Origin: Ruminiclostridium sp.
GTDB lineage: Bacteria; Bacillota; Clostridia; Oscillospirales; Ruminococcaceae
Assembly: GCA_017465545.1 (NCBI GenBank)
Contig: JAFTVY010000068.1
Coordinates: forward strand, 1-50,129
DNA: 50,129 bases
Direction of reading: 5' to 3'
The translations under genes were made by a program, and so were the position numbers. Of this stretch, positions 26,025 through 40,141 are shown one piece after another (positions within the stretch are counted from its first letter, which is position 1; the number at the start of each line of letters is the position of its first letter). The notes under the pieces are model-generated. The model saw only the letters and a program-made list of their open reading frames with translations, was not told the origin of the DNA and did not search any database.

Positions 26025-26030
26025 AATAGA

Positions 26031-26209
26031 AGCAGGTAGAGGTGCGGTGATGAAAAGTACCCGTTGTGCCAATTCCCGACGGATTGCAACGGTGAAAGGA
26101 TAAACCGCCGAAGGACGTAAACGTGTCGGAGTTTGCGTATCTGGTTCTGTATCGAACAGGTTCAGAATTGTCATCGGGCGGTAAGCATCGGATGGAGAGC
26201 TATCGACAA
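26031..26209 (+). promoter_or_regulatory. Lysine riboswitch (L-box)
   Basis: The leader contains the L-box signatures in order: GGTAGAGGTGCGG, GGTGAAAGGATAA, CCGCCGAAGG, ATCTGGTTCTGTATCGAACAGG, ATTGTCATCGGG and GGATGGAGAGCTATC. These closely parallel the Bacillus lysC leader (AGAGGUGCG, GGCUGAAAGG, CGCCGAAGC, GGCUAUCUC). The P1 helix pairs GGTAG (26035-26039) with CTATC (26200-26204). A terminator follows at 26260-26288, and asd-dapA-dapB lie downstream, so bound lysine should stop transcription. Confidence 0.95.
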
Positions 26210-26259
26210 TATAATCGGATTATAATGTCAATACGTTATCATATATACGTGCTTATTAT

Positions 26260-36500: not shown

Positions 36501-37604
36501 ATGAAACGAATACTTGGATTCAGCAAAAAGAATGCAGTTTTGCTGATAGCTTTTTTTGCGGCTATGATAACCACTATTATAGTGCCGCCTGACAGTCAGT
36601 ATTTAGGATACTTTGACTATAAAACGCTCACCTGCCTTTTCTGTGTACTTGCAGTAGTGTGTGCGTTAAAAAACATAAACTTCTTCTATATTTTAGCGTG
36701 TAAGATAGTACGCTCCTTTAAAAATGCGAGAATGTGTATTCTGGTGCTGGTGTGGGTAACCTTTATCGGTTCAATGCTTATTGCAAACGATATGGCGCTT
36801 CTCACCTTCCTGCCGCTGGGCTATTTTGTTCTGCACACAACTAATAAAGAAAAATATATGGCTTTTGCCTTTATAATGCAGAATATAGCCGCAAATCTCG
36901 GTGGAATGCTGACACCCTTCGGAAACCCCCAGAATCTTTATTTATATTCAAAATTCAATATCCCGATAGATGAATTTACTATGATAATGCTCCCTCCCTT
37001 CTTATTCGCTGTAATGCTCATTTCTCTTTGCTGTATGATATTCATAAAGCCTGAACCTATGAGCTTTAAAGATGAGAAGGTTGAGCTGAACAAATCAAGA
37101 GCTGTTTTCCTGCTTATCCTCTTCGCATATTCTATTGTAATTGTGTTCAATATAATTCCCTACTGGACAGGACTTATCATAATTCCTGCGGCGCTTCTGA
37201 TTACAGACAGAAAAGCGCTTAAATCAGTAGATTACGGTTTACTGCTCACCTTTGTATGCTTCTTTATCTTTGCCGGAAATATGGCAAGAATCGATGTAGT
37301 AAAGGAGCTTATCGGCGGAATGCTGGAAATGAACACTCTGCTTGTAAGTGCTCTTTCCTGCCAGGTTATAAGCAATGTACCCTCCGCTATTCTGTTGTCA
37401 CAGTTTACTGATGACTACAGAAATCTCCTGCTTGGCGTGAATATCGGTGGCGTAGGCACGCTTATAGCTTCCCTTGCAAGTCTCATCACGTTAAAGCAAT
37501 ATACATCCTTATGTCCCGGTAAAACAAAGAAATACATTGCAGAGTTCTCTTTATTCAATTTCGGATTTTTATTCCTGCTGAATGGATTTTGTATGGTGTT
37601 CTGA
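36501..37604 (+). CDS. SLC13/CitMHS-type anion permease
   Basis: The 367-residue protein is almost entirely membrane-embedded, with about ten segments. It has the two hallmark loops of the divalent-anion/arsenite-like permease superfamily: LTPFGNPQNLYLYS and QVISNVPSAILLSQF. This family moves citrate, dicarboxylates, sulfate or arsenite; the substrate is not readable here. It is somewhat shorter than most members (often 400-450). It stands alone between two terminators, with GGAGAAACTAAAG before the ATG; I see no convincing promoter close upstream. Confidence 0.8.
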   Translation: MKRILGFSKKNAVLLIAFFAAMITTIIVPPDSQYLGYFDYKTLTCLFCVLAVVCALKNINFFYILACKIVRSFKNARMCILVLVWVTFIGSMLIANDMALLTFLPLGYFVLHTTNKEKYMAFAFIMQNIAANLGGMLTPFGNPQNLYLYSKFNIPIDEFTMIMLPPFLFAVMLISLCCMIFIKPEPMSFKDEKVELNKSRAVFLLILFAYSIVIVFNIIPYWTGLIIIPAALLITDRKALKSVDYGLLLTFVCFFIFAGNMARIDVVKELIGGMLEMNTLLVSALSCQVISNVPSAILLSQFTDDYRNLLLGVNIGGVGTLIASLASLITLKQYTSLCPGKTKKYIAEFSLFNFGFLFLLNGFCMVF

Positions 37605-37612
37605 TAATACCC

Positions 37613-37649
37613 AAAGCTGATACAACGCAAAACGTTGTATCAGCTTTTT
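37613..37649 (+). terminator. Terminator of the permease gene
   Basis: A perfect 14-bp stem (AAGCTGATACAACG, 37614-37627, with 37633-37646) around CAAAA, followed by TTTTT. The next promoter starts only 2 bp after it. Confidence 0.93.
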
Positions 37650-37650
37650 A

Positions 37651-37679
37651 TTGACATATTTTGTTCCTTATGCTATAAT
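37651..37679 (+). promoter_or_regulatory. Promoter of the structured leader RNA
   Basis: Exact consensus TTGACA (37651-37656), 17 bp, TATAAT (37674-37679). The start should be near 37686, at the first strand of the closing helix of the leader RNA. Confidence 0.92.
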
Positions 37680-37680
37680 T

Positions 37681-37847
37681 AAGGTGCGACACAACCGAAT
37701 ATTGCCATATACACAAGTATGTATTTTTACTTTCATGGTAAAAGTGCATGCTCTACTTTCGCATACTTGGTTTATGGCAGAAAGGTTGTGTCGCAGCAAT
37801 CGGAGCTTTGCATTTTTCGGTGCGTAGCTTCGGCTGCGCACTTTTTT
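37681..37847 (+). ncRNA. Unidentified structured leader RNA (candidate riboswitch/attenuator or small RNA)
   Basis: About 165 nt between a consensus promoter and a lipoprotein gene fold as nested helices. P1 is 12 bp (TGCGACACAACC 37685-37696 with 37784-37795), P2 7 bp (37703-37709 with 37773-37779), P3 8 bp (37714-37721 with 37762-37769), and an apical hairpin pairs TTTTAC with GTAAAA (37725-37730/37738-37743). A UUCG-capped terminator follows at 37820-37847. A competing pairing, GCAG...TCGGAGC (37793-37806) with GCTTCGGCTGC (37827-37837), would break both P1's last pairs and the terminator, as an antiterminator does. I do not recognise it as a known class (not T-box, SAM, lysine, TPP, cobalamin or c-di-GMP by motif). 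Confidence 0.65.
37820..37847 (+). terminator. Intrinsic terminator within the leader of the C39-like lipoprotein gene
   Basis: GTGCGTAGC (37820-37828), TTCG loop, GCTGCGCAC (37833-37841), then six T. The 9-bp stem with a stable cUUCGg loop should terminate efficiently, 21 bp before the gene's start codon. Confidence 0.9.
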
Positions 37848-37868
37848 ATTGTGAAAGGAAAATGAAAA

Positions 37869-38807
37869 ATGAAGAACCAGTTACTTAAAGCCATAAGTCT
37901 TATTATGGCAGTTTCTCTGCTTTGCTCCTGTGCAGAACAGAACGTCGCTTCATCATCTGTTTCTGAAACGGAAAGTAAGTCAGAAAACTCAATAATAGAA
38001 ACGACCGATAGCGAGGAAACAAGTAAAATCGAAACGTCAGGTACAACTATAGATAGCACGACGACAAGTGCACCTGAAACAGATACAACATCAATGATTG
38101 AAACTGCAACAACGACAAAAGTTCCTGAAACTGAGGCAACTACAGAAGCTACTGTAAAACCAGAAGGAATTGAAACTTCAACCGAAAGTGTTGCTGAAAT
38201 ACCTGATACTCAATTAAATGAAGTAATTGAACTCGATATAGAAGGAGTTAATGCATACAGTAAATTCCCATCAGGTTCAGGTCTATCGGCTGTAGCAACT
38301 GTTCTTGGATATTACGGAATTGAAGTAACTATGGAAGAGTTGTATAATGCCGCTGATATATACGCCGATCTTTCTATTGTCGACGGGTTGACACCATCGC
38401 CGTGGGAAAAAATCGTGTGCTCTCCGGCAACTAAATCATCCGTGTATTTTGCACCTCCTATCGTAAATATGGCTAATAAATATTTAAATAGTATAGAGAG
38501 TACGCTTATCGCTAAAGACGTTTCGGGAAAATCCGTTGATGAATTACTCTCGTATGTTGCTAATGATAAACCTGTAATTATATGGGCAACCCGAACAGGT
38601 AAAGCGGCGCCTGATGGACTTTCTTGGATTGCAGATAACGGCAAGGAAGTGTTAACAAAAGCAAAAGTGCTTATATATGTCATAGCGGGATATGATACAG
38701 AAAATGTATACATGTTGAATAACACTGGAAGAATTTTTTACGATGCTAAATCAAGCGTAGAAGAAATGTACCAATCCGTCTATTCCCAGGCAATAATAAT
38801 CGAATAA
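37869..38807 (+). CDS. Lipoprotein with Ser/Thr-rich stalk and a catalytically degenerate C39-like domain
   Basis: The 312-residue protein has a lipoprotein signal ending LLCSC, then a low-complexity Ser/Thr/Glu stalk (about 25-120). The C-terminal domain is patterned like Peptidase_C39_2: YSKFPSGSGLSAVATVLGYY corresponds to the usual P-T-G-C-E-S-V-S start, KPVIIWATRTG is the middle strand, and LIYVIAGYDTENVYMLN matches the usual H-x-V-V-x-x-GYD. The catalytic Cys is Ser here and the catalytic His position is Leu, so it is probably a non-enzymatic binding domain. AAAGGA lies 10 bases before the ATG. Its mRNA starts with the structured leader at 37681-37847. Confidence 0.75.
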   Translation: MKNQLLKAISLIMAVSLLCSCAEQNVASSSVSETESKSENSIIETTDSEETSKIETSGTTIDSTTTSAPETDTTSMIETATTTKVPETEATTEATVKPEGIETSTESVAEIPDTQLNEVIELDIEGVNAYSKFPSGSGLSAVATVLGYYGIEVTMEELYNAADIYADLSIVDGLTPSPWEKIVCSPATKSSVYFAPPIVNMANKYLNSIESTLIAKDVSGKSVDELLSYVANDKPVIIWATRTGKAAPDGLSWIADNGKEVLTKAKVLIYVIAGYDTENVYMLNNTGRIFYDAKSSVEEMYQSVYSQAIIIE

Positions 38808-39898: not shown

Positions 39899-40141
39899 TT
39901 ACATTTTTCCGAGTTCCTTGAGGCAATCCTTACAGATATTCTTGCCCTTGAACTGCTTGATATCACTTGCATTGTTGCAGAATGAGCATGCAGGTGAATA
40001 CTTTTTGAGAATAATCTGATCGTTATCAACATAGATTTCAAGTGAATCCTTAATGCCGATGTCGAGAGTTCTTCTCAGCTCGATGGGAATAACGATTCTT
40101 CCGAGCTCGTCAACTTTTCTTACGATTCCAGTAGATTTCAT
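39899..40141 (-). CDS. AbrB-family transition-state regulator with zinc-finger-like tail
   Basis: The 80-residue protein has the swapped-hairpin AbrB DNA-binding domain (STGIVRKVDELGRIVIPIEL through LEIYVDNDQIILKKY, about 1-48). A short Cys4 tail, CSFCNN then NICKDCLKEL, probably binds zinc. AbrB proteins repress stationary-phase and sporulation genes. GGAGTAAAGAAAA precedes the ATG at 40141. Its own promoter (40209-40237) and a 5' stem-loop lie upstream, in an intergenic region with several palindromes, so autoregulation and control of the divergent spmAB genes are plausible. Confidence 0.88.
   Translation of the reverse strand: MKSTGIVRKVDELGRIVIPIELRRTLDIGIKDSLEIYVDNDQIILKKYSPACSFCNNASDIKQFKGKNICKDCLKELGKM

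What the first reader, a model, noticed from the sequence alone, without database searches (positions are those of the whole stretch)
37681..37868. Unidentified structured leader RNA with switch-like architecture ahead of a lipoprotein gene
A perfect-consensus promoter drives an approximately 165-nt leader that folds into a 12-bp closing helix, two further long-range helices and an apical hairpin, then a UUCG-capped intrinsic terminator 21 bp before the gene. A competing pairing (37793-37806 with 37827-37837) would disrupt both the closing helix edge and the terminator. AAGTATG (37715-37721) can also pair either long range with CATACTT or locally with CATGCT. That is the logic of a riboswitch or attenuator. 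It carries no known aptamer motif I recognise.
Basis: partly seen in the sequence, partly recalled or inferred. Interest (0 to 1): 0.78.

Follow-up and report, generated by a model that had tools for sequence, protein, structure and literature searches.

The report
Class-wide RNA switch before surface-protein genes
A 165-letter RNA segment that can fold in competing ways sits just ahead of a lipoprotein gene; the same switch-like segment, unnamed in the RNA family library searched, recurs ahead of many surface and secreted protein genes in related bacteria, so it looks like a widespread on/off control whose trigger is still unknown.

Summary
The leader (37684-37847) has a perfect promoter, a 12-bp closing helix, an apical hairpin and an intrinsic terminator 21 nt before the lipoprotein start codon. 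It matches no Rfam 15 family. A covariance model built here found it in 35 of 71 genomes of the genus, 101 of 295 drawn from the order, 78 of 291 from the class, and only its own genome in a phylum draw of 299. Up to 10 copies per genome were found. An ORF of 100 aa or more starts within 60 nt of 137 of 204 copies, against 61 of 769 random points. Downstream ORFs are enriched for signal peptides; BspA-type leucine-rich-repeat proteins are commonest. Hairpin and pseudoknot share a strand, as do pseudoknot and antiterminator, and antiterminator and terminator. Best reading: a cis-acting transcription attenuator, probably an orphan riboswitch class; ligand and direction of control are inferred. 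c-di-GMP is unlikely as general ligand: 25 of 78 RNA-bearing class genomes lack a detected GGDEF domain.

The parts
37651..37679 (+). Promoter, TTGACA-17-TATAAT with TG before the -10
   Evidence: 12 of 12. Among copies of 45 bits or more a -10-like hexamer (at least 4 of 6, A2, T6) lies 2-8 nt before the RNA in 214 of 220 with enough upstream sequence
37684..37847 (+). Whole structured leader (covariance model R1 match, 157.6 bits; it is one of the 26 sequences of the model)
37685..37696 (+). P1 5' strand, pairs with 37784-37795
   Evidence: fold; covariation: 4 P1 pairs at E=0.000 under a tree-based null; 58 better, 1 worse, 2 ties of 61 sister pairs
37784..37795 (+). P1 3' strand
   Evidence: as above
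37697..37702 (+). J1/2 internal-loop strand; an AATA motif is frequent here in homologues (aptamer-like candidate, inferred)
   Evidence: AATA in nt 11-25 in 127 of 182 copies, 52 of 182 after one shuffle of each
37703..37709 (+). P2 5' strand, pairs with 37773-37779; sequence and length vary between copies
   Evidence: fold; variation seen; P2 was not tested on its own
37773..37779 (+). P2 3' strand
   Evidence: fold
37714..37721 (+). P2b 5' strand CAAGTATG, pairs with 37762-37769; 37716-37721 can instead extend P3 with 37747-37752
   Evidence: sequence by eye, partly in the fold; not tested on its own for covariation
37762..37769 (+). P2b 3' strand
   Evidence: as above
37721..37730 (+). H5: P3 (apical hairpin) 5' strand, pairs with 37738-37747
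   Evidence: 56 better, 15 worse, 6 ties of 77 sister pairs
37738..37754 (+). X: shared strand GTAAAAGTGCATGCTCT; pairs with H5 (P3) or with Y (pseudoknot)
   Evidence: matched against mismatched duplex tests
37802..37818 (+). Y: pseudoknot 3' strand GGAGCTTTGCATTTTTC, pairs with X
   Evidence: at least 9 bp in 104 of 106 copies; 40 better, 20 worse, 12 ties of 72 sister pairs, Wilcoxon 1.4e-4
37793..37806 (+). A: antiterminator 5' strand, overlaps the end of P1 and the start of Y
   Evidence: with B 48 better, 13 worse, 10 ties of 71 sister pairs
37827..37837 (+). B: antiterminator 3' strand = terminator loop and part of its 3' stem
   Evidence: as above
37819..37847 (+). Intrinsic terminator with T tract
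   Evidence: a run of 5 or more T near the end in 181 of 182 parsed copies
37853..37860 (+). Ribosome-binding site GAAAGGAA
   Evidence: by eye
37869..38807 (+). Lipoprotein gene, 312 aa, Ser/Thr/Glu-rich linker (by eye), C39-like peptidase domain (PF13529)
37649..37930 (+). Cassette shared with the second genomic copy: promoter, leader, terminator, RBS and signal-peptide coding start
   Evidence: 77.9% identity over 285 columns

Best explanation
A cis-acting transcription attenuator that works by strand exchange, most likely an orphan riboswitch class. Supported by sequence and covariation: the apical strand X can pair either with the 5' strand of its own hairpin (P3) or with Y just before the terminator (pseudoknot); the first part of Y (GGAGC, within A) can pair either with X or with the terminator loop, as the antiterminator. 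So P3 plus antiterminator is one compatible set (read-through, ON) and pseudoknot plus terminator the other (OFF). Inferred: a small molecule bound by the P1/J1-2/P2/apical domain stabilises the pseudoknot set, frees the terminator and turns the gene off; without it part of the transcripts read through. Also inferred is that the regulon is the cell surface: the RNA, with its own promoter, sits ahead of lipoprotein, leucine-rich-repeat and Ig-like protein genes.
For: Cis position: an ORF of at least 100 aa starts within 60 nt of the model end in 137 of 204 copies, against 61 of 769 random points and 5 of 201 on the divergent side; so close that there is little room for another promoter. Four covarying helices with mutually exclusive strands, better:worse P1 58:1, P3 56:15, pseudoknot 40:20, antiterminator 48:13 in sister pairs (182 parsed of 221 copies); controls X:B 20:30, H5:Y 41:30, H5:B 35:34. 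In 59 copies under 70% identity none of 2000 permutations reaches the matched mean for any of the four. Found across genus, family, order and class draws, and in a phylum draw only in its own genome. Downstream ORFs of 150 aa or more: N-terminal signal/TM segment in 111 of 144 against 48 of 182 neighbouring ORFs, lipobox 47 of 144 against 14 of 182.
Against: No ligand, no expression data. The terminator is far more stable than the antiterminator (-15.3 against -5.7 kcal/mol; 37 of 106 antiterminators at -6 or better), so read-through needs kinetics or a stabiliser. With 106 copies the pseudoknot was not significant in sister pairs (14:13, p=0.5), and its GCUC:GAGC part still is not with 182 (32:27, p=0.3). 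In the tree-based single-pair test, of the proposed pairs only P1 pairs were significant; the best terminator pair had E 0.9, the best antiterminator and P3 pairs about 7, no pseudoknot pair stood out, and several top pairs were alignment artefacts. Tandem copies seem each to have their own promoter (by eye), odd for a tandem riboswitch. 14 of 214 evaluable copies have no ORF by the rule. The control A:X1 was 27:15 (p=0.044, uncorrected).
Confidence: 0.72

Rival explanations
1. The same leader is a protein-controlled attenuator: an RNA-binding antiterminator or terminator protein, not a metabolite, chooses between the two pairing sets (as BglG/LicT, HutP, TRAP or LoaP do; recalled).
For: The terminator is the thermodynamic default, so a stabiliser of the weaker set is needed; a regulon of many unrelated genes fits a global protein (inference).
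Against: No effector gene was identified; none was searched for apart from GGDEF. The RNA is much longer than the small hairpins such proteins bind (recalled).
Confidence: 0.17
2. It is a family of stand-alone small RNA genes (promoter, about 165 nt, terminator) acting in trans; the nearby gene is incidental or merely receives read-through.
For: A promoter-like -10 precedes 214 of 220 copies and the terminator is strong; tandem rows of up to four copies (L140), and in the six tandem loci L199, L222, L231, L232, L237, L238 each copy seems to have its own promoter (by eye).
Against: ORF start within 60 nt and 100 aa or more in 137 of 204 copies against 61 of 769 random points, and the strong bias to exported proteins; the antiterminator covariation has no obvious purpose in a plain small RNA.
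Confidence: 0.1
3. Leader peptide (uORF) attenuation.
For: In the window an ATG at 37735 opens a frame through the conserved 3' part (by eye).
Against: The ATG at that place is present in 37 of 106 copies; the spacing between P1 and the Y core varies from 5 to 14 nt and keeps no frame (43, 33 and 30 copies with remainder 1, 2 and 0); no ribosome-binding site by eye in the window.
Confidence: 0.01

Closest known systems
SLH riboswitch candidate (PMC6429828; passages seen)
   Same: A structured leader ahead of surface-protein genes, found in part in Clostridia, with a signalling ligand considered by its authors
   Different: 80 unique examples in that paper, 60% before S-layer-homology proteins. 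Here leucine-rich-repeat proteins are the commonest and no SLH domain is among the 25 families shown (of 56 and 68)
c-di-GMP-I riboswitch (RF01051)
   Same: Many copies per genome ahead of surface-protein genes (recalled)
   Different: No Rfam match in the leader; 25 of 78 RNA-bearing class genomes lack a detected GGDEF
Transcriptional riboswitches with terminator/antiterminator platforms (fluoride, ZTP, lysine, TPP)
   Same: Competing aptamer, antiterminator and terminator pairings
   Different: Expression platforms have large sequence diversity (abstract of PMC13273304); here terminator, antiterminator and promoter are conserved along with the rest
6S RNA (RF00013)
   Same: Long hairpin of similar size with a strong promoter
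   Different: The genome has a separate 6S match at C37:21201-21391; the leader did not match RF00013

Membership tests
Any Rfam 15 family | Score at or above a family's gathering threshold | tested here: not met
   Window, leader at E<=10, 20 of the 52 order- and class-level loci: no match at the motif
Riboswitch (transcriptional) | Position in the 5' leader of an mRNA | tested here: met
   By position only: 137 of 204 copies against 61 of 769 random points; no transcript data
Riboswitch (transcriptional) | Conserved structure with mutually exclusive terminator and antiterminator | tested here: met
   Covariation at helix level, not at single-pair level; terminator scan
Riboswitch (transcriptional) | Direct ligand binding that changes termination | not testable with these tools
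   Needs in-line probing and in vitro transcription
c-di-GMP riboswitch | Occurs in genomes able to make c-di-GMP | tested here: not met
   53 of 78 RNA-bearing class genomes have GGDEF, 25 do not; some of these genomes are incomplete.
6S RNA | RF00013 match | tested here: not met
SLH motif | Its consensus sequence and structure | not testable with these tools
   Consensus not held as text; only passages of PMC6429828 seen
Trans-acting small RNA | Regulates distant mRNAs by base pairing | not tested
   No target search was made

The most novel reading that the evidence does not exclude
An undescribed riboswitch class, spread through one bacterial class at ten or more copies in some genomes, senses a so far unknown intracellular signal and switches the cell-surface proteome; unusually, the whole device from promoter to terminator is conserved and can be duplicated as a cassette together with the signal-peptide start of the gene.
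Probability: 0.45. Interest if true: 0.88.

Novelty: new variant of a known kind. Interest (0 to 1): 0.78.

Why it matters
A structured leader found in 78 of 291 sampled genomes of a whole class, ahead of adhesin-like and lipoprotein genes, and absent from Rfam 15, would be a large gap in the catalogue of bacterial regulatory RNAs. It would give a handle on how these bacteria decide which surface proteins to show, and finding its ligand could reveal a signalling molecule. The strand exchange also makes the switching mechanism directly testable by compensatory mutations.

Tried and rejected
Protein-based search for homologues of the lipoprotein in genome contigs gave one irrelevant locus, so no named genomes with the RNA were obtained. 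c-di-GMP as ligand: suggested by the many-copy surface-protein pattern and by GGDEF counts within the genus, rejected as general ligand by 25 RNA-bearing genomes without detected GGDEF; the known c-di-GMP-I riboswitch is in 1 of 71 genus genomes (stricter filters). 6S RNA: rejected. uORF: rejected. Mobile phage or plasmid element: no plasmid match for two query copies, 2 faecal phage records, 0 and 1 viral contigs for two exact patterns. Direct pairing of X with the terminator 3' strand as antiterminator, tried as X:B: weak in the redundant set (2 of 2000 permutations reach the observed value), absent in 59 non-redundant copies (254 of 2000) and in sister pairs (20:30). A:X was 0 of 2000, but A contains part of Y, so it is no proper control; A:X1 gave sign p=0.044, uncorrected. 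My first background for exported proteins (54 of 273 signal, 11 of 273 lipobox, mechanical ORFs) was too lenient to spurious ORFs and was replaced by 48 and 14 of 182; the enrichment shrinks but stays. Literature: the listings showed no description of this RNA (titles and abstract starts only; 48, 49 and 72 listed 15 of 20, 26 and 30 papers); passages were seen from PMC8040213, PMC2965389, PMC6429828 and PMC8632094, and the outline with abstract of PMC13273304; supplements could not be read, so an anonymous entry in published candidate lists is not excluded.

Full report
The promoter 37651-37679 is TTGACA-17-TATAAT with TG before the -10. The leader folds far better than shuffled sequence (-74.7 against -44.3 +/- 3.9 kcal/mol, z = -7.8, 0 of 200). 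P1 is 37685-37696:37784-37795, the apical hairpin P3 37721-37730:37738-37747, the terminator 37819-37842 with a T tract to 37847, and the lipoprotein starts at 37869. Rfam 15 has no match in the leader at gathering score; over 37500-38000 at E<=10 it gives 12 weak hits, all below gathering score. The window's only Rfam hit is a lysine riboswitch at 26029-26210.

The leader is one copy of a family. A DNA search found a second copy in the same genome at 80% identity, also right before a lipoprotein gene, and matches in 35 of 71 genomes of the genus. A covariance model R1 (165 positions, 28 pairs, 26 sequences) found it in 35 of 71 genus genomes, 22 of 197 drawn from the family, 101 of 295 from the order and 78 of 291 from the class, all at E<=0.001. 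A phylum-wide draw of 299 at E<=0.0001 gave only the own genome; at least nine of those 299 are of the same order or class. The draws overlap. In one genome 9 (order, class, phylum), 14 (family) or 40 (genus) candidates were scored, so copy numbers, up to 10, are lower bounds. No Rfam family matched at the motif in 20 of the 52 order- and class-level loci.

The RNA is placed as a leader. Among 221 copies of 45 bits or more, 214 could be evaluated and 200 have an ORF downstream on the same strand (at least 45 aa, RBS-like motif, start within 350 nt), at a median of 35 nt from the model end, 163 of 200 within 60 nt. Because that rule is lenient I added controls: any such ORF within 350 nt follows 190 of 204 copies, 112 of 201 on the divergent side and 383 of 769 random points; but an ORF of 100 aa or more starting within 60 nt follows 137 of 204 copies, 5 of 201 divergent sides and 61 of 769 random points. 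That leaves little room for another promoter. A -10-like hexamer lies 2-8 nt before the RNA in 214 of 220 copies; an earlier, stricter count gave 139 of 166 against 4.6% of 3,140 background positions. 181 of 182 parsed copies end in 5 or more T.

The downstream genes share a theme, not a family. Of 144 downstream ORFs of 150 aa or more, 111 have an N-terminal signal or membrane segment and 47 a lipobox, against 48 and 14 of 182 neighbouring non-overlapping ORFs, by a simple heuristic of mine (first count: 119 and 50 of 168 against 54 and 11 of 273). Pfam LRR_5 (BspA-type leucine-rich repeats) is the commonest domain, in 16 of 72 and 12 of 77 proteins scanned; outside the leucine-rich-repeat models, Big_2 (6 and 4) and fn3 (2 and 5) come next. 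Some downstream genes do not look exported: two with AMP-binding (acyl-CoA ligase-like) and two with HTH_3 domains, and small proteins of unknown kind.

The structure is a switch whose alternatives covary. I cut each parsed copy into segments and asked whether the segments of one copy pair better with each other than with those of other copies. In 59 copies under 70% identity no permutation of 2000 reached the matched mean for any of the four proposed helices: P1 -16.8 against -9.1 kcal/mol, P3 -13.5 against -9.6, pseudoknot -16.2 against -12.5, antiterminator -10.8 against -8.1; for the controls H5:Y and X:B 1066 and 254 of 2000 did. In sister pairs chosen on a tree of the copies so as to be independent, the matched combination was better:worse 58:1 of 61 (P1), 56:15 of 77 (P3), 40:20 of 72 (pseudoknot, sign p = 0.0067, Wilcoxon 1.4e-4) and 48:13 of 71 (antiterminator, p = 4e-6); the rest are ties. 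Controls: X:B 20:30 of 71, H5:Y 41:30 of 78, H5:B 35:34 of 79, A:X1 27:15 of 61 (p = 0.044, uncorrected). The pseudoknot signal lies in GUAAAAGUGC:GCAUUUUUAC (28:7 of 46); its GCUC:GAGC half is not significant (32:27 of 69). With only 106 genus- and family-level copies the pseudoknot was not significant in this test (14:13 of 41), though 104 of 106 can form at least 9 bp. In that larger, redundant set the control X:B was not clean (2 of 2000 permutations).

A stricter single-pair test with a tree-based null gave E = 0.000 for four P1 pairs, 0.9 for the best terminator pair and about 7 for the best antiterminator and P3 pairs; no pseudoknot pair stood out, and several high-scoring pairs around the Y core were alignment shifts, not pairs (the realigned blocks were not put through it). 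So P1 is firmly shown, P3 and antiterminator are supported at helix level, and the pseudoknot is the least secure of the four.

How it probably works. X has two partners, H5 and Y; GGAGC at the start of Y has two partners, X and the terminator loop; and the terminator 3' stem has two partners, its own 5' stem and A. P3 with antiterminator, or pseudoknot with terminator, are therefore the two self-consistent sets (shown as pairing potential). That the first is ON and the second OFF follows from the terminator's position. That a ligand stabilises the second set is inference. The terminator is much the more stable on paper (-15.3 against -5.7 kcal/mol on average in 106 copies; 37 of 106 antiterminators reach -6), so the device should terminate by default unless folding order or a bound factor favours read-through.

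Ligand. The pattern recalls c-di-GMP riboswitches, and within the genus RNA-bearing genomes have more GGDEF domains (median 22 against 10.5; they are also larger, 2.6 against 2.1 Mb), all 71 having some and 1 of 71 the c-di-GMP-I riboswitch. But 25 of 78 RNA-bearing class genomes have no detected GGDEF, which speaks against c-di-GMP as the general ligand. No other candidate was tested.

Copies in a row occur: four in L140 and two in L078, L080 and L093, and pairs in L199, L222, L231, L232, L237 and L238, where each copy appears by eye to have its own promoter. In L241 and L242 two successive leader-plus-gene units follow each other. This fits duplication of a whole promoter-to-terminator cassette. 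In the window's genome the two copies share DNA from the -35 box to about the end of the signal-peptide region (37649-37930, 77.9% over 285 columns), while beyond residue 120 the two proteins show no meaningful similarity (best local match 11 residues). In a near relative a third leader-bearing protein is related to the window's (34% over 164 residues).

Novelty. It is not in Rfam 15, and the searches listed no description of it; supplements could not be read. The nearest published analogue I saw is the SLH riboswitch candidate (passages of PMC6429828), also before surface-protein genes; I could not compare sequences. As a kind it is a leader attenuator, hence known; as an RNA class it appears new, and the conservation of the whole device including promoter and terminator is unusual.

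Noticed in passing
26029-26210 (+): Lysine riboswitch (RF00168, 88.7 bits), the window's only Rfam match.
   Followed up: no
37613-37649 (+): Perfect inverted repeat (37613-37627 with 37633-37647) followed by T, probably the terminator of the preceding citrate-transporter-like gene; it ends one base before the -35 box of the leader promoter (by eye).
   Followed up: no
37649-37930, and L002 1501-1781: Promoter, leader, terminator and signal-peptide start are shared by two loci of the genome whose proteins differ beyond residue 120, like an export cassette.
   Followed up: partly
L140 153-1074 (-): Four copies of the RNA in a row at about 250-nt spacing.
   Followed up: partly
L027 1501-1752 (-), L030 1501-1750 (-): Longer variants of the RNA, about 250 nt, with an extra hairpin-like insert (GGGCUGAAUU..GUUCGCCC followed by U) in the middle.
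   Followed up: no
L188, L239, L241 1211-1456 (+), L242 1753-1974 (-): The RNA precedes small Cys-rich ORFs of one apparent kind (PGN.GKDC.GNG...CCCDEC) in several genomes; family not identified.
   Followed up: no
39899-40141 (-): Small AbrB/MazE-like DNA-binding protein gene (PF04014).
   Followed up: no
G000:C37:21201-21391: Probable 6S RNA gene just at Rfam's cut-off (46.4 bits).
   Followed up: no
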